In this document: one piece after another, positions 20,651 through 56,924 of the stretch
Numbering within the stretch: the stretch's first letter is position 1
How the letters are laid out: every line of letters starts with the position of its first letter
NCBI RefSeq assembly: GCF_964199755.1
Contig: NC_133904.1
Span: 1,612,001-1,676,000 of the forward strand
Reading direction: 5' to 3'
Source: Larus michahellis
Taxonomy: Eukaryota > Chordata > Aves > Charadriiformes > Laridae
DNA length: 64,000 bases
Notes under the pieces: model-generated
The model's database searches: none
Told to the model about the DNA's origin: nothing
The model's input: only the letters and a program-made list of their open reading frames with translations
Program-made: the position numbers and the translations under genes

Positions 20651-20884
20651 ACAAATGTTATTGTACATTTTTATTTTTTTTTTATGCCTCGTTTTCCCTT
20701 GAAGTCAAAGTAATTGCTTGCTACGTGAACTAAATTTTACTAAAAATCGCCTCCTTTGCTGTAAAGTTGATTTCAAAAGAACACGGTTAAAATGTCGCAT
20801 AAGCGCTTTCTATAAAATGGGAATATAACTCGGATCGAACTTCAGCTGCACTCCTGAAATTAAAGCTTAATTGGGCCTTTTGCA

Positions 20885-28245: not shown

Positions 28246-29330
28246 ACCCAGGATGGGGTGGATGCTGTGATGGGCTCTGGAAGGCAGCGGGGTTCGGGCA
28301 TCAAATCCCTGCCCAAATGGCCCCAGCAAGGAGGAGGGAGGGAGCAGGGGGGAAGCAAAGCTCCGGATGGGGCAAGCGCCGAGGGGCAGGGCAGGGCACC
28401 GCACCAGCTCTGTGGCCCAGGGCATGCTGATGGCCACCCCAACCGCGCTGGGCTCCTGTCCCCCTCCAGCATCCACACCAGTCAGCACCCATTCTGCACA
28501 GCACGATGGCCCGGGGACCACGCGGTGCAGGATGCCGCACGCCGTGGGCTCCCCCTGCACCGAGGGGTGCCATCCTGCCCCCCGGCGCGGCTGGGGGCTC
28601 AGAGTCTCCCCAGGGTCCCTCGGCACCCACCTCGTGCCATGCCGTGCCAGGCTGCGCTGGCTCTGCCGGGACGGCCGGGAGCACACTGTGCCGGCAACAG
28701 GCGGCTCCTCTGGCCCTTCATTAGACTTTGATTCCCCCACGGGCCACTTTGCCATCAGACGAGTGTCTCGTCTACATTAATCTTTCCTTTTTGTGTTTTT
28801 GGTTTTTTTTTTTACACAAAAGCATCAGCGTATTGCACAGGTGGCCCCTAAGAGGCCGTATAAGGCAGGCAGGGAGGGCAGCTTCCCACCAGCGTTTGTT
28901 TTGGGCAGCGATGGGTCCCCGTGGGCCATCACTGCTCCCAGCACCGCCGGCCACAGGCGGGGACATCCCTGCACCCCCCAGCCCAGCGCGTCCGATGTCA
29001 CCCCGTCCCACCGGCCACCCCGAGGCGGGCGGGCTGCGCTGGCCCCCCGCGGCACCGCCGAAATATCTGCTTTTCTAGCGGAAAAAGAGGCAAACCCCCT
29101 CCTGCGCTGCCAACCAGGCGGGCAGGGCTGCGGCCGGTCTGCCCTCGGGCGGGGGGGGGTCCGGGGGGTCCCGGCCAGCGCAGCCCCGGCCCCGGGCGGC
29201 CGCACGGCCCCGGTTGCCGAGTCTGCAGTGCCCTCCTGTGGGCACCGCACACCGGGTGCCCGCCACCCCCACGGGCTCCAGCACCCCGTCCCCTCCGTCC
29301 CAGAGCCCGGCAAGGGGACGGCAGGACCCG
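28246..29330. other. Intergenic GC-rich sequence
   Basis: Long open frames on both strands arise from high GC content. None matches a known protein. It lies between a CR1 copy and the 42-bp minisatellite. Confidence 0.45.
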
Positions 29331-29334
29331 TCCC

Positions 29335-29840
29335 CTCCGTCCCAAAGACCTGCAAGGGCATCCCCTCCTTCCCAGAGCCCTGCAAGGTGATGCAGGACCC
29401 CGTCCCTTACATCCCAAAGCCCTGCAAGGTGATGCAGGACCCTGCCCCTTACATCCCAAAGCCCCGCAAGGTGATGCAGGACGCCATCCTCTCCATCCCA
29501 AAGCCCTGCAAGGTGATGCAGGATCATATTCCCTTCATCCCAGAGCCCTGCAAGGGGATCCCCTCCCTCCCAAAGCCCTGCAAGGTGATGCAGGACCCTA
29601 TCCCCTCCCTCCCAAAGTCATCAAGGTGATGCAGAACCCCATCCCCTCCCTCCCAAAGACCTACAAGGGGATGCAGGACCCCATCCCCTCCCTCCCAAAG
29701 TCGGCAAGGTGATGCAGAACCCCACCCCCTCCCTCCCAAAGACCGACAAGGGGATGTAGTACACAGTTCCCTCCATCCCAAAGCCCAGCAAGGTGATGGA
29801 ACCCCATCCTCTCCATTCCAAAGCCCTGCAAGGTGCTTAT
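29335..29840 (+). repeat. 42-bp minisatellite downstream of NOX5
   Basis: About twelve imperfect units of the form CCCAAAGCCCTGCAAGGTGA followed by TGCAGGACCCCATCCCCTCC. Typical spacing is 42 bp, with shorter variant units. Because 42 is a multiple of three and the unit lacks stops, it produces spurious long open frames on both strands. It ends about 300 bp beyond the NOX5 stop codon. Confidence 0.9.
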
Positions 29841-30154
29841 GGACCCCCTCCCCCCCATCCCAAAGTGCTCTGGGGCATTGGTTATTTCCCCCTCAAAACC
29901 TCTACACGGATGCTCCAGGACACCCATCTCCTCCACCCAAAATGGCTCCAGGACTGCGTCCCCTCCACCCCAAAGCCCCATGGCCGAGCTCAGCCCCTTC
30001 CTCTCCCTGTCCCTTGCTGTGCGTCCCACCCTCCCCAGCTTTGACTGAGAGACAGCCTGGAGCCAACACGGGCCGTGCAGCAGGATCCAGCCACCAGAGC
30101 CCATCACCCGGCATCAGGGCTGGCAGGGGCAGGCAGGGAGGCGAGGGCCAGCGG

Positions 30155-30286
30155 TTAGAAGTTTTCTTTGAAGAAGCGGAAGCCGAAGTGCTCGCAGTGT
30201 GCCCTGATGACTTTGGCAAGCGCTGGCGAGCCACAGAAGAAGACCTGGACTTTCCCTTTCTTCTCCTCCGCCACCTTCCCAAACAC
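30155..30286 (-). CDS. NOX5: NOX5 terminal coding exon 15 (residues 677-719, stop TAA)
   Basis: Acceptor TGTGCCCTAG|GTG. It encodes [20 protein letters not shown] and ends [10 protein letters not shown] before TAA, the expected NOX family C-terminus. No AATAAA was seen in the next few hundred bases, which run into a minisatellite. Confidence 0.95.
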   Translation of the reverse strand: MFGKVAEEKKGKVQVFFCGSPALAKVIRAHCEHFGFRFFKENF

Positions 30287-33200
30287 CTAGGGCACAGGCG
30301 AAAGGAGAAGAGGAGGTGGAAGGGAGAAGAGAAGGTGGTGGCACAGCCCGCTCCCCTCCCAGCGATGGCCAGATCCCTGCTGCCTGCTTTAGCAGGTGCT
30401 GCCCGGCACAACTCAGCCTCCGGGTGCTCCCCAGCACTCCCACGGGAGGGATATCCCAGGAATATCCAGGTCTGGGTATCCCAGTGCATCCTCCTGCTCT
30501 AAAATGGGTCTCTCCCGCGGTGTCCCTCCACAAAGAGCGGGTCTGGGGGACACGGTGCCCTCCCCACGAGCGTGCTGTCGGCAGCGGGGCAGGGCCAGCC
30601 CTCACCTTGCTCCAGTCGGGGCGGCCGGGCTGGGTCCTGGTCCGCAGCCCCGTGATGGAGTCCCTCTGCTCCTTGGCGGCCAGCAGGTCCAGGGCCATCT
30701 GCAGCCCGATGGCCTTCATGTCATTCTTGCTGAGGGCCGACGTCATGTACATGTGCATCTCCAAAAACGGCTCTGGGTGTTCAAGTGGAGCCCGGCTGCA
30801 GACGGGGGGTCCGGCCCCACGCCATGCCCCCTCGGGTCAGGGTGGGCTCTGCGGGGGGGGGGATACCAAGCACAGGGCTGGGCACCCCCAGGTCAGGGGG
30901 CTGTGGTGGCCGGCCCCTGCCTCCCGCTCACCTCCCGGCTCTTGCTCAGCCTGCTCCATTTCCAGCTTGGTTAGCAGGCTGACGAACCACTCAAAGTGCT
31001 TCTGGTCCCGATTTATCCAGATGAAGTCGACCTGAAAGGACACAGCAGCCTTTGGAGCTGTCAGCACGGGGGCCAAATCCAGCCACCCAACGCCCCAGAC
31101 CTCCTGGACTGGGAAGGGATGCTTGTGGGATCTCCACCCCCGTGACCCTGCAAGCCCCCTTGTCACTGTCCCCAGGGTTAACCTTGGTCCCCCTCTGCCT
31201 GCTCCTACCTTCCTGAGCGTCATCTCCTCGTCCCGCAGGTCCTCGCACCACGAGTAATGGCAGCTGGGGCAGCTCTGCTTTCGCCGGCGGTACCTGCACG
31301 GGCAGACACAGCCCTGCCCGCCCCACTGCCCGCACCCCGCACACCCCAGCAGACCTTCGCAAGGAGACCCCAAGCACCCGTTCCTCACCATCTCCAGGCC
31401 AACCTCCTGCCAGCGGGTCTCCCTGCAGCAGAAATCCCCAGGGAAAAGCCTGACACGGAGGGAGGACCCAGCTGTGGGTCTCGTGGCCACGTGTTATGAG
31501 TCCCAAGGTTAGAAGCGAGGAGGAGCCACGATGGGTGCTGCCCCATGGTGCTCATCCCGCAGGGAGAAGTGTTGGAGGACGGGTCCACCGCGGCGTACGT
31601 CATGCCTTGTGCCTCCCAAAGCGACGCCAGAGCTCGTACTGGGGATCTGCTGGCGCGACCGCAGCCCGAGCTGCTGCAACGGCACCAACCTGTACATGAT
31701 GCTCTGCAGAATGGAGGCGAAGGGGGTGATGCCGATGCCTGCGCCGATGAGCACGGCGTGCTCCGAGGTGAAGATCCTCCGCGTCGGGGTCCCGTAGGGG
31801 CCGTCGATGTAGCACTAGGAGAGACAAGAAAGTCGTGGATAAACCCAGCAGCCCGCGGGTGCTAAAACAACTCGTAAGCTGCGGATAGGAGCAGGGTTTA
31901 GTGCACAGGGGGCACTGCAGGCTCGTGGAGCACAGGGGCTACACGCATGGGGTGACCGGGCACACGTGTGGGTCCCCCCAGGGATGCTGAGCACAGCCCT
32001 GCTCACCAAAGCCGGGGAAGGACCGGGGCATCCCTCACCTTGATGCTGCAGAGCCGATGGGTCTCACCCAGCCCCGTGGACACCTGCTAGGTAAAGAGAG
32101 CAGTGAGCGTCTCCTCCTGCCTACCCCTAACCCCTCCGTGACAGCTAACGCTAACCCTCTTGTTCCCTGGGCTTGTTTTTTGGGTGTTTTTTTCTGGGCT
32201 GTGCACACCGCTTCCAGCCGCATCCCTCGATGCCAAGCTCGGTGCGGTGCCCGCACTTCTGCTGGGACACCCCACACACGTCCCATGCCGGGTACCCGCC
32301 ACCTGATGGTGTTGTCTGGATCGTAATCGGGTTGAGTATTGATTAAAAAGGCAATTATCCAGATCCCCACGCAGGCTGGGGGGTGAGTAAGAGGTTTACA
32401 GCGACCACGATGGCGCGGGCGGTGGGAGCAGGCGTGGGGAACCTCTGCTCACCGGGGCGCAGACAGGAGCAAAAGAGAGCCAGGGAGAGAAACTCAGTAC
32501 AACCGGCGCATGTAAATTCGTTATCTGCAGGGACTGCTCCGCCAGCCCAGACAGAATCAATATCCTGAGAGCTTTTCATATCGGGGGATAAAAGCCACTA
32601 ACGGTGGCGCTCAGCAGCCTGGAAGCGGATGAAGTTTCTTTTAAAAAGAGCTTCTTAATGAGTTTCGGCCCATGCGGGATGGAAGCCGCGCTTCCCCTCG
32701 TTTCTGCAGGCTGGGCCTCCAGTCGCTGCCGTGTTGATGAGAGCAGAGACCCCCCTCCCACCCCGCAGGCCCCGGGGGCTCTGCCTCTGCCCCCCGGGGA
32801 GGGCGTGGGGCTGGCGGTGCTGGGCGAGGGCGGGAGACGGTGCTCACCCCCCCCGCCGGCAGGTCCTCCTCTCCCGGGGCAGCAGCACTGGTGGCTCTGT
32901 ACGACATCAGCTGAACGTCTCCGTCCCCTCCGGTGGCCACGGACCCCTGCTCCGAGCCAGCCCTGCTGCAGAGACCTTCCTGGAAGGCAAAGGCCAAGGC
33001 ATCGCTGGCTGCGCGATGCTCGCCGGCATCTGATGGCCCATCCACCGGGGTCACACAGCCTCGGCGGAGGGTGGGACACGAAGTCCTCCAAGGCAGCACG
33101 AGCGCCTTGCGGAGGACACGCAGCAGGAGAGGTGCCCCATGCCCAGCCTGGTGCCGCACGGGTGGCTGAGAACTGGGGCGCCCCCGGGGGGAGCCGCTCG

Positions 33201-36200
33201 GCAGAGAGCGCCCAGCCCGACCTGTCCTCGCTTCTTCACTTTTTTGGAGCTGGGCAGGGAGAGCCCGCGGGGCAGAGCCCTCCCCACGTGCCAGACAAGG
33301 ACATCAGCTTGAGAAACCCATGGGCGCGCTGGGGGTGCTCAGCTTGGCAAAGCCGCATCGCAAACCTCTGCCAAGCAGCAGCATTCCACGGTCTGACCCC
33401 TGCCTTTGCCAAAAGCTGAGCCCCGTCCGCACCGACCTGCGCCCAGCGCCGGCATCTCTTCTCCCTCAGGCTCCTGCTGAGCGGTTTTGGCTCCGGGCTG
33501 GGCAACTCGGGCTGCTGGAAGTATTCGTACAGCTTGTTGGTCCACTGGCCCAGCGACCTGATGTGCAGCCAGAGGGTCTCTGCAGGATGGAGCGGGGCAG
33601 GGGGTGGGCATCCTCCGTAAGGCACTGCCCTGCCGCCCCCGGCACCACGGGCTGGGCACCGCACAGCTCCGGCCCCGGGTGCAGCAATCCCCACCTCATC
33701 CTCCTTCATCTCAGCCCTGGGCTTGCAGCAGGGGACTGGGCTTGCTCCAATAGCTGGGTGAAGCCCAAATCCCAAACCTTGGGCACCCACGGAGCCGGGC
33801 AGGGTATTCAGGTGCCATTCGTTCCCCGTGCTTTGCTTGAAATAAGCCAAACGCATGTTTTTACGCGGCACTTATGCACGGGCAGAGGTTGAGGCAACCA
33901 TGAAGGCACGCTGCCCTGCTCCATGGGCATGGCCACCTCCTCGCGCCACCCTCAGAGGGGATCCAGCTGTCCTCGTGGGGCCGGTGTGATGCAAAACATC
34001 ATCCCGGTGATGCAAAACATGCCGGTGATGCAAGATGAGGAAAGGATCGGCCATCACCTTGCTGCTCGGGAGCGCTGCTGATGGTGAAGGGGTGCCACTC
34101 GTAGGTGGCGATGGCCGGGATGTTCAGGTAGACATAGTCTCCGGGCTCGTAGCGGAAAAACTGCGGTCTCTCGATCACAAGGTGAGTCACCTGGAGAAAA
34201 AGGAGAGCAGAGAAGCTGGGAGCATCCAGCAGGCACGTCGCGCTGGTCCGTCTCCACCGGGGCGGTGTTCCCGCAGCCCACCAGCACCCGGGTTTGTGTC
34301 TCCCGTTTTCCAAAGCAGCCGGCATGAGGCGGACGCACGGCTTCGACCCCAGAAAAGGGTTTGTTCTCCCATTCACTGCCCAGCTTCGCTATCAAACAAA
34401 AATCTCGGCTAGGGCTGGCCTCGAACAGCAATTTTTTTTGAAGAAACTAAGAGCCAAAGCAGTTTTCATTTTATCATTTGTTTTCCTGTGAGTTTAGGTT
34501 TTGGTTTGGTTTTTTTTGGGTTTTTTGGGGGTTTTTTTTTGTTTTTTTTTTTTTTTTTTTACTTGCACAACAGGCAAAAATTCTAAATTTAAAAAGAATT
34601 GCCTGAAAACAAATATCGCTTTCACTTTTTTGCCACAAAGGTTCCCCGACGCAGCCTGAAGCAACGCAAACTCGCGGCTTTTCCATGCAAACTGCTCATT
34701 GCACCCCGTCCCTCCCGCGCGTGGCCGGGGGAGCATCCCCCTTCCAGCTCACGATATTAAAGGTGTTTCTGTGAGATGCGGCACCTTCATTCCCGCTCTC
34801 AGAAGAGCTGGGGGGGTGTGGGAAGGGGTGCAGACCTTGGAGGGGAGCAGGTTGACCTCCACGATGCGCAGCCCCCCAGCGCGCCGCCAAGCCAAGCCCG
34901 CCACCTTCTCCAGCGCAAAGAGGCAGCCGGGAACCGCAAACCACTTCCAGAAATGGGGGCCGTGGAGGATGAGGAGGGTCCAGACGGAGATGTAGGAGAG
35001 GTGGGTCCAGTAGAAGACCTGTGGGCAGGGAGCAGGGGGGCACAGGGTGGGCTGAGGGGGAACCGAAAGCGGTGGAGCCAAACGGTGCTTCCTGGTGAGG
35101 CGGCTCTGGGGCACCCCAACAAACAAAGGCAGCTCAAACGGTAAAGAATCCCAGATTCCCAGAGCGGTGGGGGTGGGAAGGGCCCTCTGGAGATCACCCA
35201 GTCCCACCCCCTGCCAGAGCAGGGTCACCCAGAGCAGGTGGCACAGGAACGCCTCCAGGCGGGGTTGGGATGTCTCCAGAGACGGAGACTCCCCCACCTC
35301 TCTGGGCAGCCTGTGCCAGGGCTCTGCCACCCTCACAGCAAAGAAGTTCCTCCTCGTGTTGAGATGGAACTTCCCGTGTTCCAGTTTGTGCCCGTTACCC
35401 CTTGTCCTGTCGCTGGGCACCACTGAGAACACCCTGGCCCCATCCTCCTGACACCCCCCCTTTAGCTATTGATGAGCATTGGTGAGATCCCCTCTCAGCC
35501 TGCTCTTCTCCAGGCTAACAAAAGCACGGAAACCCCAAAACTGCAAACCTGAGGAGCATTGGATGGTCCAAGGGAGGCACCAGCTCACGAGCTCTCCCCC
35601 GACATGGGGCAGCCCAGGGCTGGGCACCCCCCCACCAGACCCTCCCCCTGCTGCCCTGCTCCCCAACATGGAGCAGCTTTGGCACCGCTGGGGCTCTCCC
35701 GGTCGCGCGGGGCCGCGGCAGGACCCACCTCAAAGTGGCCGCTCCGTCGGATGCAGGGGCTGGAGAAGGCGAGCATGGCGGCCAGCAGCCCCTGCAGCGC
35801 CAGCCCCGTCTGCGAGGCCGTGCCGCCCAGGCCGCCTGCGCCGGGCCGTGCCGACAGCAGGTACTCGGCGAGGGCATGGCGCCCGTCCTGCCGCGCCAGC
35901 CTGCCTGGGCACACGCAGGGTCGGGACGGGGCGCGGGACACCCGCAGCACCCACCCGCGGCGCACCCAGATTTCTGCTGCACCCACCCAACTCTTGCCAA
36001 TTACATTATTTAAATTTGCTTTTTTCTAACTAAGAAGCGCCCAAGTGCTTTGCTCGGACGTTTTGAAAAAATGCAACATTTCTCCTTTCTGGAGCCCGTT
36101 CTCGGGCTCAGCATCGTTGCAAGGGGGGCATTGCGCAGGAGGGTGGGTAGTGCGAGCAGACGTGCTCCCCCCTTGTGTTGCTCATGCCCCCGAGCGGGGG

Positions 36201-39200
36201 GTGCAGCCCTGGCACCCCGCCGTGGGGTGATGGGAGGGCCATGGTGCGCAGGGCTGTGGGGCACAGACCCCACTCGGGAGCTGCGTGGGGGGTGAGCGGG
36301 AGCCCCCCTGCTGCCGGCTGGGGAGCCGCTAGAGGGGGATCACAGCCAGTGCACAGACCGTGCGGCACCGCACGCACCCTCTGGCTGCCCGCACCCTGCC
36401 TGCGGCCTCTCAGCCCCCCTGGGCATGTGCACCCCCCTCCCCAGGGCTTGCATCCCCCTCCCCGGGACATGTGCACACCCAGGACACATGCATCGCCTTC
36501 GTGGAGAATATGCGTGCCCCCTGGGACACATGCGTCCCCTCCCCGGGACATCTGCATCCCATCCCCGGGACATCTGCATCCCCCCATGGGACATCTGCAT
36601 CCCGCCAGGACATAAGCATGCCCCCATGGGACATCTGCATCCCGTCCCTGGGACACCTGCATCCCTCCAGGACACAAGCATCCCCCCTGGCACATATGCA
36701 TCCCCTCCCCGGGACATCTGCATCCCACCCCCAGGACATGTGCATCCCCCTGGGATACCTGCATCCCCTCCCTGGGACATCTGCATCCCTCTGGGACATA
36801 AGCATCCCCCCATGGGACATGAGCGTCCCTTCCCTGGGACATCCGCATCCCCCAGGGACACGAGCATCCACCCTCGGGGCTCGGTCCAGGCCCCCTCAAC
36901 TTTTCGTCGGTGCAGGGTGGGTGATGCCCCCTGCACCGAGGGGCATTTTCCACTTTAGCAGAGGGACTGGAAGGGGGGAACCCCCCACAGGGTTGATGGG
37001 GCGCGTTAGAGCGGGTGCTGCCCGAGACAAACCCCTGGCAGCCGAAGGGCCTCCCCTGCCCGGGAGCTGCTACTTACTGAAGTTGGCGACGTGGGCGCCC
37101 GTGTGAACGGCTGCCAGCACCAGCACCACATACCCCACCAGCTGGTGGAAAACGACGTGCTGGTCCAGTGGCAAAACCTTGGCGATGGGGGTAGCTCGCA
37201 GCCAGGTCAGGCACCTCCGCAGCATCAGCACCTCCGGGAGAGGGGCAGTCAGAGATGCCGGGGACAATCAGAGATGTTGGGGGGCTCAGCCAGGGGCTGG
37301 TCCCCCGGGGCTCCAGAGCCAGCTCCCTGCTAATACAGCCTGGAGAGCACCCAGAGGCAGAAATCAAGGACCCATCTGCAGGGTGCCATAAGTGCCCTCG
37401 TCCCAGAGAGCTCACATCCTCCCTAACCCATTATTTATTTATAAATAAGAGGAGACAGCCTGGTCCCACAACCGCAAAAGTTCACAGGCTCCGATTACTG
37501 CCCTCCAAGGAGCCCCTGGCACAGAGAGAAGGTCCTAGCGTAAACGTGACCATAAACAGCCCAGGTAACCATCACCCCGCCCCCCCGCCAGCTCAGCATC
37601 CCTCCTGCCACCCGGCACTCACTGCGAGGAAGGAGCAGTTGAAGTTCAGGCACTGCCCGCAGCCCCGGGCCACCACCAGCCACCCGCCGAGGCCGGCGTG
37701 CCGCAGGGCAGCCAGGGCGAAGAGCAGGAGGTTGAGGCTGATGTAGCCCCCCAGGAAGGCGAGCTTGCCGCGGTGGTTGTGCCAGTACGCCCGGGTCAGG
37801 TAGCGTGGCCGGCAGCTCCTCTCCGTGGGCGGCGGGGGCTTCAGCCAGCTCGCTGCACTGGGAGCGGAGGCATCGGCTTGCTCCTTGCCCGGAGAAAGGG
37901 GGAAGCCGGGGCAGTCCCACACCCAGGCTGGTACTCATCCCTGCATCTGAGTCCTGCCCCCAGCGTGGCATCATCCCAGCGCCATCCCTGCACCCATCCC
38001 AGCACCATCCCTGCACCCGTCCCTACATCCGAGCCCTGCACCTATACCAGCACCATCCCTGCACCCATCCCTACATCCGAGCCCTGCACCTATACCAGCA
38101 CCATCCTTGCACCATCCCTGCACTTATCCCTACATCCGAGCCCTACATCCATCCCAAAACCAGCCCTGCACCTATCCCTACATCCGAGCCCTGCATCCAT
38201 CCCAACACCTATCCTCACATCCAAGCCCTGTCCCCATCCCAGCAGCATCCCTGCAGCTATCCCTACATCCATCCCAACGCCATCCCTGCACCTATCCCAG
38301 CACCATCCCTGCATCCATCCCAATGCCATCCCTGCACCTATCCCAGCACCATCCCTGCATCCATCCCAATGCCATCCCTGCACCTATCCCAGCACCATTC
38401 CTACATCTGAGCCCTGCATCCATCCCAATGCCATCCCTGCATCCGTCCCAATGCCATCCCTGCATCCGTCCCAATGCCATCCCTGCATCCATCCCAACGC
38501 CATCCCTGCACCCATCCCTACATCATCCCTGCACCCATCCCTACATCCAAGCCCTGCATCCATGCCAACACCTATCCTCACATCCAAGCCCTGCCCCCAT
38601 CCCAGCAGCATCCCTGCAGCTATCCCTACATCCACCCCAACGCCATCCCTGCACCCATCCCAGCACTATCCCTACATCCGAGCCCTGCATCCATCCCAAC
38701 ACCATCCCTGCACCCAGCTTGGCACCGCAAGGCACTTGTGTCGCTCCCAGTACCTTATGGCCTGGGCACCCCATGAGAACCTTAGTGAGGGCATAAATCC
38801 CATGTTTTTCCCTCCACTCAGGAGGAAAAATGTGCTCACAGGGGAACCCGCAGCCCCACGGGACTGCCGGAGGGCCCCCCCGTCACAGCTACCTGATGGT
38901 CAAGTTCTCCATGACCTCTGGGAAACCCTCCAGCTCCTCCCGGAGCTCCTCGAAGGTGATGGAGCCGCTGTGGTCCTTGTCGGCGGCCTCGAAGAGTGCC
39001 CAGGTGAGGTCCGCCAGCCGCTCCTCAGGCAGGGCTATGGCGCTCTCCCGCAGGCACCACCGCAGCACCAGGCGCAGCTCGTCGGGGTCGATGCAGCCGC
39101 TGCCTGCGCGGGGCGAGCGGGCGCCGCAGCGGGTCACGGCAGGGACCCCCCACGCGCTGCCGCACCCCGACAACCCCACGGTTCTACCTTCACCTTGCAC

Positions 39201-40711
39201 CTTTGGTGCAGAAATCACCTCCCCTTAACGCACGCAGGCTCTTTGGGAGGAAGGACCGTGCCATTGCTCATAAATCAGCTGGTTTTTTTAAAGAAAGGCG
39301 ACGTAATGGGCCGTTTCCCCGCAGCAGCCGCGTTGCCGCCTGGCTGGCAGAGCTCGGCGCTAGCAAAGCCACGCAGACGCGCTTATCTGGCAGCCAGGCA
39401 CGAGGGCAAACCAGACGGGCAAGCGGCTTGGCTCTCAGTTCTTCGGCCAGCATTTTCTGCCCAAGCAGGTCCGAGCAGGAAAAGCAGCTCAAGAAGAGCT
39501 TTGCTTTTGTTATTTCCAGCTTTCCCAGCCCATGGAGGAAGAAGGGAAGAAGGGAGCGGGCTGGGATTTGCAAATATCAAGGGGGCTGAGAGCTGATGCC
39601 TGTGCGGAGCAGAGAGGGCTCCTCTCCGCGGCCGAGGGGGAAAGCGAATTGTGGGAATTCCTGCCGGGTGGCTGGTTTAACTGCTGGTTTTCAGGTGGAT
39701 TTGTGCCAGATAGACGCTTACCTTTAACGGATATCCAGCAGCGAAGACCCACCTCCCCCCTTACCCAGCTGTGCTTAACCCCAGAGGGGACCAGCACCGA
39801 GCCCGAGGGGCGATGCCGGCACTTGGATGCTCAGAGGAGAGCCGCGCCACCTTGCAACTTTGTTCAAAAAAAACCCCACAAATTAACCTGTTTTTCATCA
39901 TTTTACCATCCACGTCGTAAACCTGGAAGAGGAATCTCAGCTTGTCCGTCTGGCTCCCGTGCATGAGCAGGCTCAGGGCTTTCAGCAGCTCCTCCAGACT
40001 AATGGTCCCGCTCCCGTCCGAGTCGAAGAGCGCGAAGAACCTCTCGGCGAAGAAGGACTGCGGGGAGGGGGGCAAACGCTCTCACGTGGTGGCGGTGGGA
40101 TGCTCTCCCACCGGCCGGGTCCTGACGCTACAAACAAAACCTCTCGCCACCAGCCATGGGAATCGTCTGGCAAAAGCTGAAAGTCACGGGGACGGTCCGA
40201 AAACGGGAGGGAGGGACGAAGGCTGCCGTTTCGCAGGGGTGTATTGGCACCGCAGCCGGAGGGGGCTGCCCGGGGAAGGGAGGGAGCCCAGGGTACACGG
40301 GATGGGATGGGACGGGGCAACAGGCAGCTGGGAGGGAATATTCGCTGGGAATAGCCAAGCGCGTTCAAAGACAGACTGTGGATATCCAATCTATTTTGCA
40401 TTGCGGGTGGTTAATCCGTGTTTTCCACTCTCACTTGCTGCAGCGTACCTCCAGGTTTCTCTCTCCCGCAACATCATGCGATTCTATTTTTTAAGCTTAA
40501 TTTTCTCGAAGTACAATAAGAGACCACAGCTCGGTGTCGGGCTGCCCAGAGGAAGGGACCCCACACCCCGGCCCCCCGCGGGAGCGCTCACCTCCTTCAC
40601 TTGCAGAGCACTTTTGAATTCTTCCAAGTTGATTTCTTTGTGCTCCCCCGCGATGTTCCCGAACTGCTTCCTCACCCGCCGCAGCCACTCGGCATCCTCA
40701 GCCGCGCTCAT
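30155..40711 (-). CDS. NOX5: NADPH oxidase 5 (15 coding exons, 719 aa)
   Basis: Calcium-regulated membrane flavocytochrome that passes electrons from NADPH through FAD and two haems to oxygen, making superoxide. Fifteen exons with GT-AG borders join in phase to 2160 nt (719 codons plus stop), within the size range of human NOX5 isoforms. Visible parts: N-terminal EF-hands (one degenerate loop near residues 20-32, canonical loops [12 protein letters not shown] near 53, [12 protein letters not shown] near 88, [12 protein letters not shown] near 132); a six-helix haem domain with paired histidines H268/H282 and H355/H368; the FAD motif HPFTISS at 443-449; NADPH-site motifs CYIDGPYG (518) and GAGIGITPF (541); FFCGSP (692) and a C-terminal phenylalanine (719). 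The start is the ATG matching the known MSAEEDA-type NOX5 start. The splice acceptor just upstream suggests another 5' exon. No frameshift or missing key residue was seen. The identification is very secure. Confidence 0.96.
30606..30772 (-). CDS. NOX5: NOX5 coding exon 14 (residues 621-676)
   Basis: Acceptor AACACCCAG|AG, donor AGC AAG|GTGAGG, phase 0. It encodes [19 protein letters not shown] and [12 protein letters not shown], both strongly conserved in NOX5. Confidence 0.95.
30932..31031 (-). CDS. NOX5: NOX5 coding exon 13 (residues 588-620)
   Basis: Acceptor CCTTTCAG|GTC, donor CCG GGA G|GTGAGC, ending in phase 1. It encodes [20 protein letters not shown] and a glutamate-rich tail matching the human protein residue for residue in length. 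Confidence 0.94.
31209..31293 (-). CDS. NOX5: NOX5 coding exon 12 (residues 559-587)
   Basis: Acceptor GCCCGTGCAG|G, donor AGG AAG|GTAGGA, phase 0. It encodes [14 protein letters not shown] and the following acidic helix, an insertion in the NADPH domain that is typical of NOX5. Confidence 0.92.
31690..31814 (-). CDS. NOX5: NOX5 coding exon 11 (residues 518-558)
   Basis: Acceptor TCTCCTAG|TGC, donor TAC AG|GTTGGT, ending in phase 2. It encodes [15 protein letters not shown] and the NADPH-binding loop [15 protein letters not shown], near-identical to the human protein. Confidence 0.95.
32039..32083 (-). CDS. NOX5: NOX5 coding exon 10 (15-codon microexon, residues 503-517)
   Basis: A 45-nt exon between TACCTAGCAG| and AAG|GTGAGG, phase 0 at both ends, encoding [15 protein letters not shown]. 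It aligns with the human segment ending KFCNIK just before CYIDGPYG. It is too short for ORF-based detection and is supported by its borders, its phase and the LCSIK end. Confidence 0.82.
33437..33579 (-). CDS. NOX5: NOX5 coding exon 9 (residues 455-502)
   Basis: Acceptor CATCCTGCAG|AG, then [20 protein letters not shown] and a basic stretch ([12 protein letters not shown]) corresponding to the regulatory polybasic region of NOX5. The donor CAG|GTCGGT is weak and was chosen because it alone gives phase 0 into the next exon. The 3' border is the least certain in the gene. Confidence 0.85.
34058..34190 (-). CDS. NOX5: NOX5 coding exon 8 (residues 411-454)
   Basis: Acceptor TTTCTCCAG|GTG, donor CAA G|GTGATG, ending in phase 1. 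It encodes the FAD-binding beta barrel: [10 protein letters not shown] and the flavin motif [13 protein letters not shown]. Confidence 0.94.
34494..34560. repeat. Poly-T/TG low-complexity tract in a NOX5 intron
   Basis: T-rich sequence with interspersed G, ending in a run of about 18 T. It lies in the intron between exons 7 and 8. Confidence 0.8.
34836..35018 (-). CDS. NOX5: NOX5 coding exon 7 (residues 350-410)
   Basis: Acceptor GCCCACAG|GTC, donor TCC AAG|GTCTGC (a weak GT context). It encodes VFYWTHLSY and the fifth helix with haem-ligand histidines H355 and H368, then HGPHFWKW, the sixth helix and VEVNLLPSK, where the cytosolic dehydrogenase domain begins. Confidence 0.94.
35147..35516 (-). 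mobile_element. CR1 fragment inside a NOX5 intron
   Basis: Lies between coding exons 6 and 7. Nearly identical to the copy at 11284 (AGATCACCCAGTCCCACCCC and the GAGATGGAACTTCCCGTG block), so both come from the same young CR1 subfamily. Confidence 0.9.
35729..35904 (-). CDS. NOX5: NOX5 coding exon 6 (residues 291-349)
   Basis: Acceptor GTGTGCCCAG|GC, donor TTT GAG|GTGGGT, phase 0. The extracellular loop is Gly/Ala-rich and diverged from the human protein. It is followed by the fourth helix (about 323-338) and the conserved CIRRSGHFE. Both borders fit the neighbouring phases. Confidence 0.9.
36425..36875 (+). repeat. 20-24 bp minisatellite in a NOX5 intron
   Basis: About twenty imperfect units built on GGGACATCTGCATCCC plus a variable C-rich tail, between NOX5 exons 5 and 6. 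Variants replace CTGCAT by AAGCAT or GTGCAT. Confidence 0.9.
37078..37231 (-). CDS. NOX5: NOX5 coding exon 5 (residues 240-290)
   Basis: Acceptor CTCCCGGAG|GTG, donor TTC A|GTAAGT, ending in phase 1. It starts [14 protein letters not shown] and holds the third helix with two haem-ligand histidines, H268 and H282. Their 14-residue spacing matches that known for NOX2. Confidence 0.94.
37623..37857 (-). CDS. NOX5: NOX5 coding exon 4 (residues 161-239)
   Basis: Acceptor GCTCCCAG|T, donor CTC GCA|GTGAGT, phase 0. A proline-rich linker (KPPPPTE) is followed by [10 protein letters not shown] and the first transmembrane helix (about residues 193-212), then [12 protein letters not shown], which is near-identical to the human protein. 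Confidence 0.94.
37935..38725 (+). repeat. 23-bp minisatellite with higher-order duplication in a NOX5 intron
   Basis: More than thirty units of the form CATCCCTGCACCTATCCCAG with C-rich variants, between NOX5 exons 3 and 4. A multi-unit block starting near 38217 recurs near 38580 (shared CCATCCCAGCAGCATCCCTG), an offset of about 363 bp. Confidence 0.92.
38893..39103 (-). CDS. NOX5: NOX5 coding exon 3 (residues 91-160)
   Basis: Acceptor CGCGCAG|GC, donor ATC AG|GTAGCT, ending in phase 2. It completes the third EF-hand (GSGCIDPDE) and contains the fourth ([12 protein letters not shown]), then [10 protein letters not shown], which links the EF-hand module to the membrane domain. Confidence 0.93.
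39907..40057 (-). CDS. NOX5: NOX5 coding exon 2 (residues 41-90)
   Basis: Acceptor CCCCGCAG|TCC, donor GAT G|GTAAAA, ending in phase 1. It encodes [17 protein letters not shown] onward, with a complete second EF-hand loop ([12 protein letters not shown]), and ends inside the third loop (DVD). Confidence 0.93.
40592..40711 (-). CDS. NOX5: NOX5 coding exon 1 (residues 1-40)
   Basis: Begins [17 protein letters not shown] and carries the first, degenerate EF-hand ([12 protein letters not shown]). It ends in phase 0 at AAG GAG|GTGAGC. A pyrimidine-rich acceptor, GCCCTCCCGCAG, sits before 40722, so the physical exon probably starts there with 11 nt before the ATG. Confidence 0.93.
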
Positions 40712-40729
40712 GGTGCGGGAACCTGCGGG

Positions 40730-41130
40730 AGGGCACAGCGCGGGACGGGCAGCAGCCCCTCGCAACGCCCTGGAGCCTTCAAAACCTGCTTTTTTACTGT
40801 TTCTGCCATGCTTTCACCACCCGCAGGCTCCCTGCAGCCGGGCACGGCGTGGCTGCTCCCTGCCGGCTTGCCAGGGCAGGATGGGGCATTCCTCGCTGCT
40901 GGTCCCACATTGGGTCCCGCAGCAGCCGCCCTGGGATGAGCCGGGACGCAGGCAGCCACGACAGCCGTGGTGACAATACACACCTGAGGAGCACGTGGGT
41001 GCTGCATCACACACAACCCCAAATTTCCACGTACCAAAGAAACGAGCTGCTGAGTCCTGTTTGTACCTGCCGCGCTACCGATCACCACCACGAATGAGCT
41101 GGAGGTGATATTAGTACTAATAAGGGGTAA
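40730..41130. other. NOX5 5' flank, no further exon recognised
   Basis: Sequence upstream of the first recognised NOX5 coding exon. The acceptor at 40723-40725 implies an upstream exon, but none with an ATG and matching phase was recognised. No TATA box or CpG island is evident. Confidence 0.4.
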
Positions 41131-48400: not shown

Positions 48401-49489
48401 ATTTTTTGTCAGGCAGAAGAGAAGACGTTTTGAGAAAACATTTTAACTGAATGTGCCAAATTTATGAAATAATGACTACGCTAGAAAGTTAGAAATATAT
48501 TTTAAAATTAAATATAAAACACAATCATCTTCTTTACTTGGTATTAAAACACCAAGAATGTGCACATTGTTCTTCTCTGAATGTACGACTTGTATCATCA
48601 TGGTATGAACCCGTTTTTAATGGAAAAAGCAACGAAGAAGTATGTCATGGATATTGAACTAAAAGCCATACAAGTGAATATATTTAGTTTAAAAACATGT
48701 TTATGTCAAAAAGCCGAAAACTCCCATTTTCAGCTTTTAACCCATGCAGAAGACTACGTTTCAAGAAAGAACAATATTTGAGAGAAGCCTGCTAAGAATG
48801 TAACTAGAACCAAAAGAAAATGCAAATAAACAGTAAGAAAACAGAAATAGTATAGCGCTCCAAAAATCTGGCAAGAAGCAGCAGAAAATGTAAATATTGC
48901 ACAGTACTATTTTTAAGTAAGAACATATTTTCCAATGAGGACATTTAAATTGGAATATGTCCACACACAAAAAAAAAAAAACCACAACCAAAAAGCAGAG
49001 GAATTGTTGGAGCCAATTTATTACTGTGTCATTAGTGGAGAACATCAAGTGTATTCTAAAAACACACGTGCCTTGAGTTGTCATTCACCAGTTCACTGTG
49101 GTCCAATTTATCGCTGTCACATAACAGACATGAGTAAAAACATTCTAAAATGATAACTTCTGGTTATCATTCTAGATAACCAATCACTGGTTTGGGTGAC
49201 GGACAAAACTGAAAATCAGTCTTTTAAATCTCAAAGAAAGACAATGACAACATTCCAGATATTAGCACTTAACTTATTTTTTAAAGCGTTTTCACCGTTC
49301 TTAAAAGCTGGAATATTTTTCTCAACACAACTATCAGTATATGTATTCAATTGATGACTAAAATCATAAAGCAGGTTAATCAAAGATCTTATTTTCCTGC
49401 TTCCAGCTGAGCTCTCTCCTTGACCTAGTGGACAGACGGATGGAGAGGGAGGAGCATTAGAAAAATTATACAGTTGCTCTTACAAATCC
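45466..49489. other. Intergenic AT-rich sequence
   Basis: Strongly AT-rich from about 45.9 to 46.7 kb and 47.9 to 49.4 kb. No coding exon, RNA gene or complete repeat element recognised. It separates NOX5 from the SPESP1-like gene. Confidence 0.45.
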
Positions 49490-49495
49490 TTTATT
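49490..49495 (-). promoter_or_regulatory. Polyadenylation signal AATAAA of the SPESP1-like gene
   Basis: AATAAA on the minus strand lies five bases after the last possible stop codon of the terminal exon. The position fits a very short 3' UTR. It is a single hexamer, so chance occurrence is possible. Confidence 0.4.
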
Positions 49496-49500
49496 CTTTT

Positions 49501-50148
49501 CTAGATTCCAGCCAATTCGACATACCCGCTGAGACGTGGTTTGTTTAATGCTCTCAGGGCATTCACTACTGCTATCTGTAATGTTTCAATCACTCCCGAG
49601 AGGACTTTCCCTAGAGCTTGATGTTCCATCTTCTTAGACTCGTGCAACCTTTTTCATCATTTTGCCGGTAGGTTTGGGTTTTTCAAATTTAATTGTGATA
49701 TTTAGCATACCTTTTTTTAAGACACTCTTCCAAGATTTCACTAAATCCATTTAGTAGCTGATCAAGAGCCTTATTTTTCTTTCTTTTAGCAGCAGTTTGA
49801 AATATTGAGGCTAGCTCTTTCAGTGCTCTTGTCAGCCAGGTAGACTCAGAAACACATAAACCAGAAATATCTGGGTCGGTTTGGACTGTCAAAGCCGATG
49901 GTGTTGTAGATGGAGTAGGTTTTCTTGTCATCGAGACGTTTTCTAGTTGTTTTTTTTTCTTTTTAGTGTGTTTCCTCCATACTTTAACCAAAGAGAATCA
50001 ACGGTATCATTGAGAGCGGGTGTGATGGCTGAATGCTGAGCTGGCGCATCCTGCGTGGGCACATGTTGCATTACGTGCTCCAGAACGTCCATGAGGCTCT
50101 TCACGGTTTCCTCTTCTTCAGCGGCTTCTGTCCTTGTTGTCCAAGATG
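49501..50148 (-). pseudogene. SPESP1-like terminal exon with three frame changes
   Basis: Acceptor AATACTCTCTTGCAG|CA at 50149-50151. The entering frame stays open through VLEHVMQHVP to TAG at 49943-49945. A second frame is open from the nine-A run (49950-49958) to TAA at 49689-49691 and contains LTRALKELASIF and LDQLLNGFSEILEECL. A third is open from the seven-A run (49712-49718) to TAA at 49634-49636 and contains MLNITIKFEKPKPTG. A fourth is open from the five-A run (49650-49654) to TAG at 49501-49503. Each open piece has protein-like composition, as expected for one coding exon broken by indels. Sequencing error at homopolymers cannot be excluded. Confidence 0.5.
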
Positions 50149-50554
50149 CTGCAAGAGAGTATTAAAAAGCTTTGAAGTTGTGCGTTCAGGCAAACGTCAG
50201 ATGTACATCTCGTTACGCTCACCCTTCAGTCAACATCACAGTACAAACACACTTATGCTAGAATAATTATCATCTTCACATTTACAGAAAATCCATTTGT
50301 TTTGCCATACTAGATGGCAACCTTGCTGACTTGAATGGACGAGTAATGCAGTGAATTGTCCAGTTCACTCTGTCTCTGTAAAGAAATGGAGTCTGTTCCA
50401 CACTGCTCTCGAAAGCTGCAGCTTTTGTGCCCTAATGAGCACGGGAAACGTGCATGGGATGCCTTCCTGAAGAGCTTATTGGCTTGAAAAAGGTCCTACT
50501 GCTTAGTCTGAAGCTGAATTGTGGGTCGTTGCTGTGCAAGGGGAAAGCTCTTAC

Positions 50555-50624
50555 CGTGGACGACAGCACCCGCTGTGTCTGCAGCTGAAAGCTCAGGAGA
50601 TGAGGATGGATGAGGCACCATCAT
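50555..50624 (-). CDS. SPESP1-like exon 3 (70 nt)
   Basis: Acceptor TTTTGTGTTTGGCAG|ATG, donor CAC G|GTAAGAG. Phase 0 in and phase 1 out, encoding MMVPHPSSSPELSAADTAGA. Its first codon is ATG, so it could hold an alternative start if exon 1 is non-coding. Confidence 0.45.
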
Positions 50625-51878
50625 CTGCCAAACACAAAACCTAACTTTAATCCCATCAGGGCTCACCGCTCATTGCGGTGATAATATTCATCGCCATATC
50701 ATCGCACTGAATTTTTTTAGGTTCAAATTAAGAGAAACTACTGTAAAAAAACTGGGGTGGTGGGAGATAACTTTAATGAAAACATTATGCCTAGAGGGGC
50801 CTGGAAACTCAAAGTTAAGGCTACTATTTTTAGTAAAGAACCAATCAAACCAGGCCAAGAAAAAAAAAACCACAGTATATTCATGAATATATTCTTTACA
50901 ATACTCACAACTCATAAATTTGCTTCTCCTCTAGACGCACTATGTGGGGGAGAATATAGGCTTTTTCAAGTTTAAAAATGTCAAAATCCAACTTGCAAAT
51001 GAATGCTTTCAACTGAACGTTTTAATTTACACTTTGCTTTCCTACCTTTTTTCTTGGAAAAAAATTACCTCAGGTAGATTCTAAACAGCTACCCGGCCTG
51101 CATGCAGGAAATATACGTACGAACTTCCACATGCGCAAAACTTTGAACAGGAACTAATATACACTCAGGCCTAAAAGCCTCATGTACGGCCAGTGGCCCT
51201 ACGTGTACACGGTACATTCTTTTATCATTAGACTGAGTATTTTTGAACACTACCGCACAACTAAGAAAGTACAACTTTTGAAAGGTACCATAAAACTATG
51301 AAAAAGTACCACGTGTTCTTTAAAACTACCTGCACCTCAGAAGCAGCGAAGTTTCTCCACCCAGAGGTATTCTAAAATCCTGAACCCAGTCGGTCAACGC
51401 TAACAACTACAACAAAATGTCACAAAACCCACAGCATATCGCAAACTGTGCAAAAACACGGCACGTTATTGTGTTTGAAAATCATAAAACCAGAAAGCAA
51501 CGTACGACTCCTGTTCCTACGTCATCATTCAAATCCTGGCACTAGAAGGGTGTGACATATCAAAACTCAATGACATGTTATAAAAAGTGCCGCTTGATGA
51601 AATGAATCCTCTTCACTAGGAATAAATAAGCGCCTTCATGAAAGGTTCCACCTTGCAAATTTTAAAGTGAAATTCATGCAAGTCTTCCCATAGCGGGAAC
51701 CTATTAGGATCCTCCCTTTGTCTCCCTCGACATTGCTCACATAAAAATCAACAGGAAAGCTTCCTAATAGTCTCAAGAGCAGAAAAATTTGGGTTATCAT
51801 ATACATAGTAGCACCAAAAGAGTGAGTAATTAATGAGATAAATACATCCACGTTCCAAAGTCCCCTTGCTAAAATTAC
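50625..51878. other. Intron of the SPESP1-like gene
   Basis: AT-rich sequence between the proposed exons 2 and 3. No further exon with matching phase was recognised. Confidence 0.35.
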
Positions 51879-54019: not shown

Positions 54020-55639
54020 GATATTTCCCGTCCTCTATATCAACAGAAAACATTGATGAATGCTACCATCGAGTAACCTGCCAACTGAATAGAAATATTA
54101 TAAACTCTGGTGGCACCTGCAAGTGCCTTCTGCTCTTCCCAAATGTTCCTTATGCCTCAGTTAGCGACAGCCCTACAACTTCTACCACGCTGGAAACAGT
54201 GTAGGAAATTAGGGAAGGTTTCAGGTAATAGGTGCCCTTTAACAGGTTTATCTTGCATCATACCTTGAAGTACAAATTGTGCTTTAACAGTCTATTCAGG
54301 TAGAAGTTTGTGAAGGAAAGGTAAAAGTTTTATAACTATACAGGAGGCAAAGCCTAGTATTATTTTTATTTCTGTCAAGCTTTCTATAATGGCTAAATGT
54401 TTAAAAATATACGTTCCATAAAAAGGCACACAGAAGACTGTGTGAAAAAGACACGGATTTACTCTCGTTCATTGAATGTCTGAGCAAGAACGTAAAGTTT
54501 TTCGCTCTCCTCAAACAAGCCGTCGCTCATCAAACAATCGAAGGGGAAAAGGTGTTTTATGCAGCAAGAGTAACACGAGCAACGGCTTCCCGCAGGCACA
54601 CGTACAATTAACCACCGGGCAGAGTCCTCTGTACCAACGAAAATATCGAATCTCTTCTGGGCCCGCTCCTTCGGAAGGTTAAAGAACGGGAGCTCAGACT
54701 GGAACAAACTCCCGAGCTTGCCTCAGGTTGGTAGCAGCAGTCGCGGACGCGTTCCCCCTCCTCGGTAGCCCACACCAGCAGCAGGTGGCCACGCTCCGGG
54801 GCTCCCTGTCCTGCTCGCTAACTCTCAGACACAACGCTGAACTCCAAGAAACACATCTGACAACATCATTCTTGATAAAGTCTTGATTTAAGCAAGAAGA
54901 GGAGCCTCGCTGTAGATGATCATTTCCATCAACAACAGACTAATGCACTATTGCTAAGCAAACGCTTGCGGTTTGGGTCATAACCGAGTACCTCCAGTGG
55001 AAAAAAAAAAAATTACAAGCTTTGAAAAGAGAGAATAATTTGAAGAAACAGGTAGAAAACGCTACGAAGAAAATGAAATTTTAAACAACATTAGTCCTGG
55101 GAGACGACGACCGTGGGGAGAAGATGGGCCCGTCACTCATCACTTCGCGCTCTGCCTCGCTTGGTGGCAGAAAAGCTCAAGCATTCACACCAGATTGCTA
55201 CTTTAAGCGCTGCAGAAGAGCTATTTCGGCTTGCCACTTCCCTAAATCCGCGAACACGATGTTCCTTTAGGCCCCTCATGATGTGATGGAGTAAAAACCC
55301 TTAACCTACAGCTGACAGGACATAAATATATTTTTACAAGCACACAGAAGCTACGTGGCTTCTAGGTGCTTACGGCCACCTTTTAAAAAGAATTATTTGG
55401 AAACGCCGGAAAGAATATATCTAATGTCACTAGCTAGCTTCAGTAGTATAATGATAGTCCCTTTAATTTTTATTTTTTTTATTCAGCGTTTTAATTTGGG
55501 GAGGAGCTGTGTATGTAGCTAAGCAGGTCAGCAACCCCTTTATGGGTAAACTCTAACGCTTCCTATCTGGTTTTACACGCTCAGCACCACAAATAAAGCA
55601 CAGCACGGACCGTGCCGGTTCCTGGGAAGCAAACTGGGA

Positions 55640-56100
55640 CGCGAGCCCAGGACCAACCACCCAAAAAACCGGTGACCGCCCGCGGGAGGGCCGGCATCGC
55701 CCTCGGGAAAAACCTCACATCGGCGGGATTTCGGTAAAAAAGTTAAAAAAAAAAAAAGTTAAAAAAAAAAAAAAGAAAAAGAGGAAAAGGAAAAGGAGGA
55801 AAAAGCCACATTCCCCCAGCGCCCCCCCGGCCCGGGCGGCTCGGTGCTGGGGAACACAGTGGCGACTCACCGCCGGGCGGCGACAGCCCCGTCCCCAGCG
55901 CCGCGGCCACCAGCAGCGCCAGCGCCGCCCGCCGCCGCCCCGGGAACGGGACCCGGCCCCAGCCCGGTCCCCCCTTCCCAGCCCGGTCCCCCCTTCCCGA
56001 GCCGGGAACCAAGCGGCCCTGCGGCGGAGGAGCCGGCGGGTGGTGAAAACATGGATAAAAGCCCTTTAAATGCTGGCGCTCGGGGGGGGTCTCTGCTGTC
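55640..56100 (-). promoter_or_regulatory. CpG-rich first-exon region of the SPESP1-like gene
   Basis: Dense CpG block in AT-rich surroundings, including the leader exon. It could also fire divergently to the right, but no plus-strand gene was recognised there. Promoter activity is inferred from composition only. Confidence 0.45.
55871..56018 (-). CDS. SPESP1-like exon 1 (signal-peptide exon)
   Basis: GC-rich exon ending CCC GGC G|GTGAGTC in phase 1. The open frame reads GRRRAALALLVAAALGTGL, a typical signal-peptide core after arginines. The 5' end is uncertain; 56018 is only an acceptor-like CAG. The frame has no ATG back to a TAA at 56151-56153. The ATG at 56052 lies in another frame. A 19-20 bp direct repeat of G-rich sequence lies just upstream in the exon. 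Confidence 0.4.
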
Positions 56101-56924
56101 ACACGCCAAACGCCATAAACCCGAGCCGGTTTCAGGCCCCAAACGCGAAATTACCGCAATGACAATTTGCTGCAATGAGGGCACAGAAATAGGCAGCAGC
56201 AGCCTGGATGCACAGCCAGCAACAAGTAACGGCTTCCACCCTACCCTCGGTGCCCACGGCCGCTGTGCCCTTCAGAGACACCCCCGCAAACCACCTGCGG
56301 ACCCTTCCCGACCCCAAGGTACCTGTGCTTCTGCAGGGACTTCGGTCCAGGGGTCAAAATCTCCTGCAGGCAGCAAGGCAGCGGTTGCCACGTCCCGGCT
56401 GCACGTGCTAAGGCTGAGAAGGGGGACCCAGTGTCACCTGGGGTGAGAAGGGGGACGCGGCCTCACCTGTACAGCGCAGGCACTGCTGCGGATGAAACAA
56501 TCCCGGTCCCGGCTCCCCAAAGAAACCAGCCGAGTTGCGGAGTATGGGATGGACGAGGGAGTGCAGAGGCAGAGAGGTCCCTCACGCACCCACGCCTGAC
56601 CCCTCGGCCGAGGATTGATGGTAGCATTAAGTTGGTTACACCGTGATTTACTTCTCTCTTGGCTGTAAGTATGTTAAAGGAACCAAATGGTATTGCCCAT
56701 CATTAGCTACTGCTTTTAAAGTGATTGTTCTGGTTAACATTTCCTTTAGGAAATAAGAGCGGGCTGTGACCTGTATCAAATTGAGAATGACTTAGCGCAG
56801 CAATAATCCAGCTATTAGCCCTTAGCCACAGCTGCTAAGGAAGATCCCGAAATAATGTTAAACTAAGGGGTAGGAAGACGAGCCAGGATTGCTTGTTCCT
56901 ACTACTGCTACCAATATTCCCCTG

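What the first reader, a model, noticed from the sequence alone, without database searches (positions are those of the whole stretch)
49501..50148. SPESP1-like terminal exon broken by three frame changes
Four overlapping open frames tile one 648-nt exon end to end. Each switch falls at an A run (nine, seven and five A). The pieces have protein-like composition, the exon has a clean acceptor, and a poly(A) signal follows the last stop. This is the pattern of a reproductive gene recently lost in this lineage, or of homopolymer errors in the assembly. NOX5, 10 kb away, shows no such errors, which favours real decay.
Basis: partly seen in the sequence, partly recalled or inferred. Interest (0 to 1): 0.7.

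Follow-up and report, generated by a model that had tools for sequence, protein, structure and literature searches.

The report
Broken exon in SPESP1's expected place
In what looks like a bird chromosome, the place where mammals keep the sperm gene SPESP1 holds an exon whose reading frame is broken several times; it most likely marks an ordinary lost gene, though it is not proven that it was ever SPESP1 or that it is truly lost.

Summary
The description holds: at 50148-49501 (minus) a good acceptor is followed by four open frames with three frame changes, at or beside A runs, then TAG. Chance tiling is uncommon, not excluded: 41 of 5000 shuffles, 25 of 364 local windows. Codon usage is uninformative.

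The exon probably does not end at 49501. The last frame, read past TAG and a second stop (TAA, 49482-49480), opens again to TGA at 49233-49231. That piece resembles the SPESP1 C terminus; the first stretch resembles the mature N terminus. Read to 49231 the exon spans 306 codons (human mature part: 331 residues); a global alignment is reached by 1 of 1000 shuffles. Gene order and strand fit SPESP1 (ANP32A, NOX5, GLCE, KIF23). Pfam's SPESP1 model does not match, so I do not file it as a member.

Assembly error is disfavoured: 0 of 30 A/T runs of 5-7 are broken in five control genes, and the two stops are not homopolymer changes. NOX5 alone is a poor control. No reads, RNA or relatives were available. 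Best reading: a decaying single-copy SPESP1 orthologue (0.6).

The parts
49231..50148 (-). candidate terminal coding exon as I now read it, 918 nt (306 codons), with three frame changes and two in-frame stops
49946..50148 (-). first open stretch (exon offset 2); its first ~40 residues resemble the mature N terminus of human SPESP1
49692..49997 (-). second open stretch (offset 1)
49637..49750 (-). third open stretch (offset 2); only about 20 codons of it lie between the second and third A runs
49501..49653 (-). fourth open stretch (offset 0) ending in TAG
49480..49503 (-). two in-frame stops of offset 0: TAG 49503-49501 and TAA 49482-49480
49231..49479 (-). open piece in the same offset 0, 82 residues, TGA at its end; resembles human SPESP1 residues 287-349
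49950..49964 (-). A5 and A9 runs in the first switch interval (49997-49943)
49712..49718 (-). A7 run in the second switch interval (49750-49689)
49650..49654 (-). A5 run at the edge of the third switch interval (49653-49634)
49490..49495 (-).
49017..49022 (-). next AATAAA, about 210 bases after the TGA at 49233-49231
50555..50624 (-). candidate upstream exon, 70 nt, acceptor score 2.9, donor GTAAGA score 4.7; its one left-over base completes an Ala codon with the terminal exon
   Evidence: inferred, no RNA evidence
30158..40744 (-). NOX5 exons (13 tblastn pieces), synteny anchor

Best explanation
The exon is what remains of the terminal exon of this species' single-copy SPESP1 orthologue, running from 50148 to about 49231. 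It lost its reading frame through small insertions or deletions at or near A runs and has two further in-frame stops, so it no longer encodes the full sperm equatorial-segment protein. Shown here: position, strand, acceptor, one DNA copy, three frame changes and two stops in the assembled sequence, weak N- and C-terminal likeness in the right order. Inferred: orthology, that the breaks are in the animal and not only in the assembly, and loss of function.
For: Gene order ANP32A (+, exon 1 about 32 kb upstream) / this exon (-) / NOX5 (-) / GLCE (-) / KIF23 (-) fits the mammalian neighbourhood of SPESP1 as I recall it. N terminus: with residues 19-62 of human SPESP1 (recalled; the recall matches PF15754 at E 2.7e-165) the first stretch ranks 1 of 1326 open pieces in the 41-kb interval (47 against 40; 61 against 53), and with residues 20-62 again first when stops are read through (47 against 41; 60 against 59); the alignment starts at the acceptor. 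Shuffles reach the score of upstream exon plus first stretch in 24 and 10 of 1000. C terminus: the piece 49479-49234 ranks 2 and 3 of 1326 for residues 221-350; 27 and 10 of 2000 shuffles reach its score against those residues. It is downstream, on the same strand, in the same frame as stretch 4, and ends within a few residues of the human end. Whole: 306 codons against 331; global alignment of the read-through is reached by 1 of 1000 shuffles with either matrix; the 915 bases need 5 switches, 5 of 3000 shuffles need as few (mean 12.1). No GT-AG intron inside the 648 nt bridges a frame change. Controls: 0 of 30 A/T runs (5-7 long) broken in NOX5, GLCE, KIF23, RAG1 and RAG2 against three changes at six A runs here, Fisher P 0.003; with RAG1 and RAG2 only, 0 of 18, P 0.01. 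One DNA match in the 1.4-Gb genome, itself.
Against: PF15754 does not match the pieces, the read-through peptides or the genome (the tool warns that one search does not show absence). Local alignment of the read-through with mature human SPESP1 is reached by 91 and 89 of 2000 shuffles; stretch 4 plus the C-terminal piece by 61 and 59 of 2000; the C-terminal piece against the whole protein by 74 and 63 of 2000. With stops read through, windows elsewhere in the interval score higher than this one for residues 221-350 and for the whole mature protein. In one search the first stretch ranks only 4 and 3 for the whole protein. The 19-62 window and the C-terminal piece were picked after alignments had been seen. 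Stretches 2 to 4 alone are not above shuffles. Codon usage does not single out the claimed frames. No convincing signal-peptide exon was found up to ANP32A.
Confidence: 0.6

Rival explanations
1. Chance: the stretch is intergenic or non-coding transcribed DNA, and the open frames and the SPESP1 likeness are coincidence.
For: 25 of 364 local windows tile as well as the 648 nt; codon usage is uninformative; Pfam gives no match; with stops read through, other windows of the interval score higher for the C-terminal and whole queries.
Against: Acceptor score 6.9 at the exact start, a score reached by 13 acceptors in 23 kb; N- and C-terminal likeness in the right order, strand and place; 5 of 3000 shuffles for tiling of the longer exon and 1 of 1000 for the global alignment.
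Confidence: 0.22
2. Assembly error: the gene is intact in the animal, and consensus errors broke the frame.
For: All three frame changes lie at or beside A runs, up to A9; the longest control A run is six.
Against: 0 of 30 A/T runs of 5-7 are broken in five control genes. Two of the changes are at runs of only five and seven. If the exon runs to 49231, the TAG and TAA are not homopolymer changes. The contig is 51.9 Mb long, which suggests but does not show good quality.
Confidence: 0.07
3. A working gene with a shorter or different product: for example a short SPESP1-like peptide that ends at the first stop after the A9, or a further intron before the C-terminal piece.
For: An upstream exon joins the first stretch in phase. 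An acceptor of score 3.4 lies at 49424, just before the C-terminal likeness.
Against: The only donor above 0 in the first stretch scores 1.2. From the positions, neither of the better donors (49710, 49525) joins the acceptor at 49424 in the frame of the C-terminal piece when read from stretch 2 or stretch 4.
Confidence: 0.07

Closest known systems
SPESP1 (sperm equatorial segment protein 1, Pfam PF15754)
   Same: Place and strand between ANP32A and NOX5; exon starts where the mature protein starts; about 40 N-terminal residues align without gaps and about 60 C-terminal ones with gaps, in order; similar total length (306 codons against 331 residues).
   Different: No PF15754 match; the middle does not align; three frame changes and two in-frame stops.
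SPESP1 pseudogene of the horse (PMC3434135, passages read)
   Same: Loss of the same gene; that paper infers pseudogenes from a stop or indel at the syntenic locus.
   Different: A mammal. The paper samples two birds and, in the passages I saw, names SPA17 and ADAM15 as chicken pseudogenes; its figure and table, which would give the state of SPESP1 in birds, I did not see.
Unitary pseudogenes in general
   Same: Single copy, intron-bearing, syntenic, frame broken.
   Different: No functional orthologue in relatives could be shown here.

Membership tests
SPESP1 (PF15754) | Match to the curated profile | tested here: not met
   No match at E up to 10 for pieces or read-through peptides; 0 matches in the own genome, with the tool's warning that this does not show absence; the recalled human protein as positive control gives E 2.7e-165
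SPESP1 (PF15754) | Position next to NOX5 and ANP32A in the right orientation | tested here: met
   the mammalian order is recalled
SPESP1 (PF15754) | Sequence likeness to SPESP1 | tested here: inconclusive
   For: N terminus rank 1 of 1326, C-terminal piece rank 2 and 3, global alignment 1 of 1000 shuffles. Against: local read-through 91 and 89 of 2000 shuffles, other windows higher
SPESP1 (PF15754) | Separate first exon with signal peptide | tested here: inconclusive
   Scans of 50.1-82.2 kb gave no convincing candidate
SPESP1 (PF15754) | Intact open frame of about 330 codons | tested here: not met
   306 codons with three frame changes and two stops
SPESP1 (PF15754) | Testis expression, equatorial-segment location | not testable with these tools
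   no RNA or protein data
Unitary pseudogene | No intact copy elsewhere in the genome | tested here: met
   one DNA match, itself (query 49400-50700); the protein-level search did not complete
Unitary pseudogene | Disabling changes present in the animal, not only in the assembly | tested here: inconclusive
   30 of 30 control A/T runs intact; no reads
Unitary pseudogene | Functional orthologue in related species | not testable with these tools
   no other bird or reptile genome held

The most novel reading that the evidence does not exclude
The gene is still used: slippage of RNA polymerase or ribosome at the A runs (A9, A7, A5) yields some longer SPESP1-like protein in the testis, a form of recoding not, to my recall, described for a vertebrate sperm gene. 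The two further stops make this less likely if the exon really runs to 49231.
Probability: 0.02. Interest if true: 0.8.

Novelty: new member of a known kind. Interest (0 to 1): 0.35.

Why it matters
If real, it would show that SPESP1 predates mammals, that it has diverged in this lineage beyond the reach of its Pfam model, and that it has been lost at least once outside mammals; the horse is a published mammalian case. That would help to ask whether sperm-egg adhesion in birds can do without the SPESP1/EQTN pair.

Tried and rejected
Introns inside the 648 nt as the cause of the frame changes: no GT-AG pair (50 nt or more, donor score at least 1, acceptor at least 0) bridges any switch.

A further intron before the C-terminal piece: an acceptor of score 3.4 lies at 49424, but the donors found do not join it in frame; reading on in the same frame is simpler.

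Opposite-strand gene: it needs 7 switches.

Repeat or retrocopy: one DNA match in the genome, and an acceptor at the start.

PDB sequence search: nothing. Rfam: nothing in the window at gathering thresholds.

First exon with a signal peptide: candidates at 51806, 60428 and 72886 (minus strand) are weak. The last, in L002, contains LLWP as human SPESP1 does, but its donor scores 2.7 and leaves phase 2. I treat all three as chance.

Codon usage: trained on NOX5, GLCE and KIF23, the claimed frame is best of the three sense frames in stretches 1 and 3 and lowest in stretch 2. Trained on RAG1, it is best in 3 and 4 only. In control exons the method finds the true frame in only 21 of 33, 14 of 25 and 24 of 44 windows.

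Literature: searches with SPESP1 plus birds; pseudogene/chicken/synteny; sperm equatorial segment protein/vertebrates/evolution; testis/chicken; reptiles; knockout/equatorial segment/fertility; avian/acrosome. None of the listed titles and abstract starts is about SPESP1 in birds. Searches listed only 20 of 9302, 25 of 27 and 8 of 22 papers, and only open-access papers are held. PMC3434135 surveys SPESP1 in species that include two birds; its figure and table were not seen.

Wanted but not obtained: A-rich control genes (TEX15, BRCA2, MKI67), EQTN in this genome, and a paralogue search by protein; the genome tool did not complete.

Full report
What was checked. The stretch at 49501-50148 is on the minus strand and 648 nt long. 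Its acceptor (CTCTCTTGCAG, score 6.9) scores above the four NOX5 acceptors tried beside it (1.9 to 6.5), and 13 acceptors in 23 kb of the same strand score 6.9 or more. TAG is at 49503-49501 and AATAAA follows after five bases. The reading needs exon-offset frames 2, 1, 2 and 0. From the stop positions, the changes fall in 49997-49943, 49750-49689 and 49653-49634. The first interval holds A5 and A9, the second A7, and the third four of the five bases of an A5. The description is right as far as it goes.

Is it more than chance? A greedy count of the fewest frame switches gives 3. In dinucleotide shuffles 41 of 5000 need 3 or fewer; in overlapping windows of similar G+C from 42.5-64 kb, both strands, 25 of 364 do; the opposite strand of the exon needs 7. 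Random intervals of the three lengths would all hold a whole A run of five or more with probability about 0.02, and the third observed interval does not strictly do so. Codon-usage scores do not help, and the control exons show that the method is weak.

The exon probably goes on. In the ranking the piece 49479-49234, just past the stated end, stood second (BLOSUM62) and third (BLOSUM45) of 1326 for the C-terminal part of human SPESP1. It is in offset 0, the frame of stretch 4, and is cut off from it only by TAG at 49503-49501 and TAA at 49482-49480. It aligns with human residues 287-349 and ends in TGA at 49233-49231, a few residues after the point that corresponds to the human end. Shuffles reach its score in 27 and 10 of 2000 against residues 221-350, and in 74 and 63 of 2000 against the whole protein. 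Read to 49231 the exon has 306 codons, against 331 residues in the mature human protein as recalled. Its 915 bases need 5 switches; 5 of 3000 shuffles need as few, the mean being 12.1. A global alignment of the read-through with mature human SPESP1 is reached by 1 of 1000 shuffles with each of two matrices; local alignment is less clear, 91 and 89 of 2000, and stretch 4 plus the C-terminal piece gives 61 and 59 of 2000. When stops are read through in the whole 41-kb interval, this place is first for residues 20-62 but other windows score higher for residues 221-350 and for the whole. An acceptor of score 3.4 at 49424 leaves open that the C-terminal piece is a separate exon, but the donors found do not join it in frame.

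A further candidate exon. At 50624-50555 a 70-nt stretch has an acceptor (2.9) and a donor GTAAGA (4.7); its left-over base makes an Ala codon with the first two bases of the terminal exon in the frame of the first stretch. This is inference from sequence only. No convincing first exon with a signal peptide was found up to ANP32A.

Where it lies. The window is G000:C13:1612001-1676000 of a 1.405-Gb genome in 616 contigs; C13 is 51.9 Mb. As I recall it, this is the mammalian order ANP32A, SPESP1, NOX5, GLCE, KIF23 with the right strands.

Is it SPESP1? PF15754 does not match the pieces, the read-through peptides or the genome, although the human protein from memory matches it at E 2.7e-165. The N terminus: upstream exon plus first stretch against human SPESP1 is reached by 24 of 1000 shuffles with BLOSUM62 and 10 of 1000 with BLOSUM45; stretches 2, 3 and 4 alone are not above shuffles. 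With residues 19-62 the first stretch ranks 1 of 1326 open pieces with both matrices, with the whole protein 4 and 3. The 19-62 window was chosen after one search had been seen, and the C-terminal piece was noticed, so their ranks are weaker than they look. That the two likenesses stand in the right order, strand, place and distance, and start at the acceptor, is independent of that choice. Because a defining feature (the Pfam profile) is not met, I call it a positional SPESP1 candidate and do not file it as a family member.

Decay or assembly error? In 2309 aligned codons of NOX5, GLCE and KIF23 there are 29 homopolymer runs of five or more with aligned residues on both sides; 13 further runs next to unaligned or intronic columns were dropped. 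A tblastn piece cannot itself hold a frame break; a break would show as missing query, and 727 of 765, 617 of 617 and 913 of 960 query residues are covered, the rest in short stretches. RAG1 and RAG2 are free of that caveat, being whole open frames: RAG1 has 1036 codons with 12 runs, ten of them A5 or A6; RAG2, identified by its place beside RAG1 and recalled likeness, has 535 codons with 11 runs, six of them A5. In all 0 of 52 runs and 0 of 30 A/T runs break a frame; the longest A run is six, the longest of any base seven. Here three frame changes lie at or beside six A runs: 3 of 6 against 0 of 30, Fisher P 0.003; against RAG1 and RAG2 alone, 0 of 18, P 0.01. The longer exon has eight A runs. 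For a run as long as A9 I have no control. If the exon runs to 49231, TAG and TAA are further breaks that homopolymer error would not make. The DNA of 49400-50700 has one match in the genome, itself.

Mechanism and meaning. Most likely a single-copy sperm gene lost constraint and gathered small indels at A runs and stop codons. The product would now end shortly after the A9. [quoted passage not shown] Loss is thus a known kind of event for this gene. Missing are any orthologue in birds or reptiles, any read and any RNA. The literature searches listed nothing whose title or abstract start is about SPESP1 in birds; the lists of 10, 13 and 43 were cut.

Verdict. Partly confirmed observation, partly supported interpretation with a corrected gene end, an ordinary kind of finding if true. 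Interest 0.35.

Noticed in passing
29289-29865, 36416-36874, 37968-38714: Three minisatellite arrays inside or just past the 3' end of NOX5 (many overlapping unit lengths, e.g. about 42, 62 and 128 bases); the last lies in a plus-strand frame open for 675 codons (37569-39596) that is probably a repeat effect.
   Followed up: partly
11286-11594 and 34749-35465, minus strand: Two nearly identical open stretches ([28 protein letters not shown]...), by recall the 3' end of CR1 elements; similar pieces near 45.1 and 61.2 kb.
   Followed up: no
19460-20670 and 55560-56450: Stretches with long G+C-rich open frames on both strands, likely CpG islands; neither is assigned to a gene.
   Followed up: no
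L002:8830-8886, minus strand: ATG-led hydrophobic piece with LLWP as in the human SPESP1 signal peptide, but with a poor donor that leaves phase 2.
   Followed up: partly
   Followed up: partly
49424, minus strand: Acceptor-like site (score 3.4) with a long pyrimidine tract just before the C-terminal likeness; could mean a further intron.
   Followed up: partly
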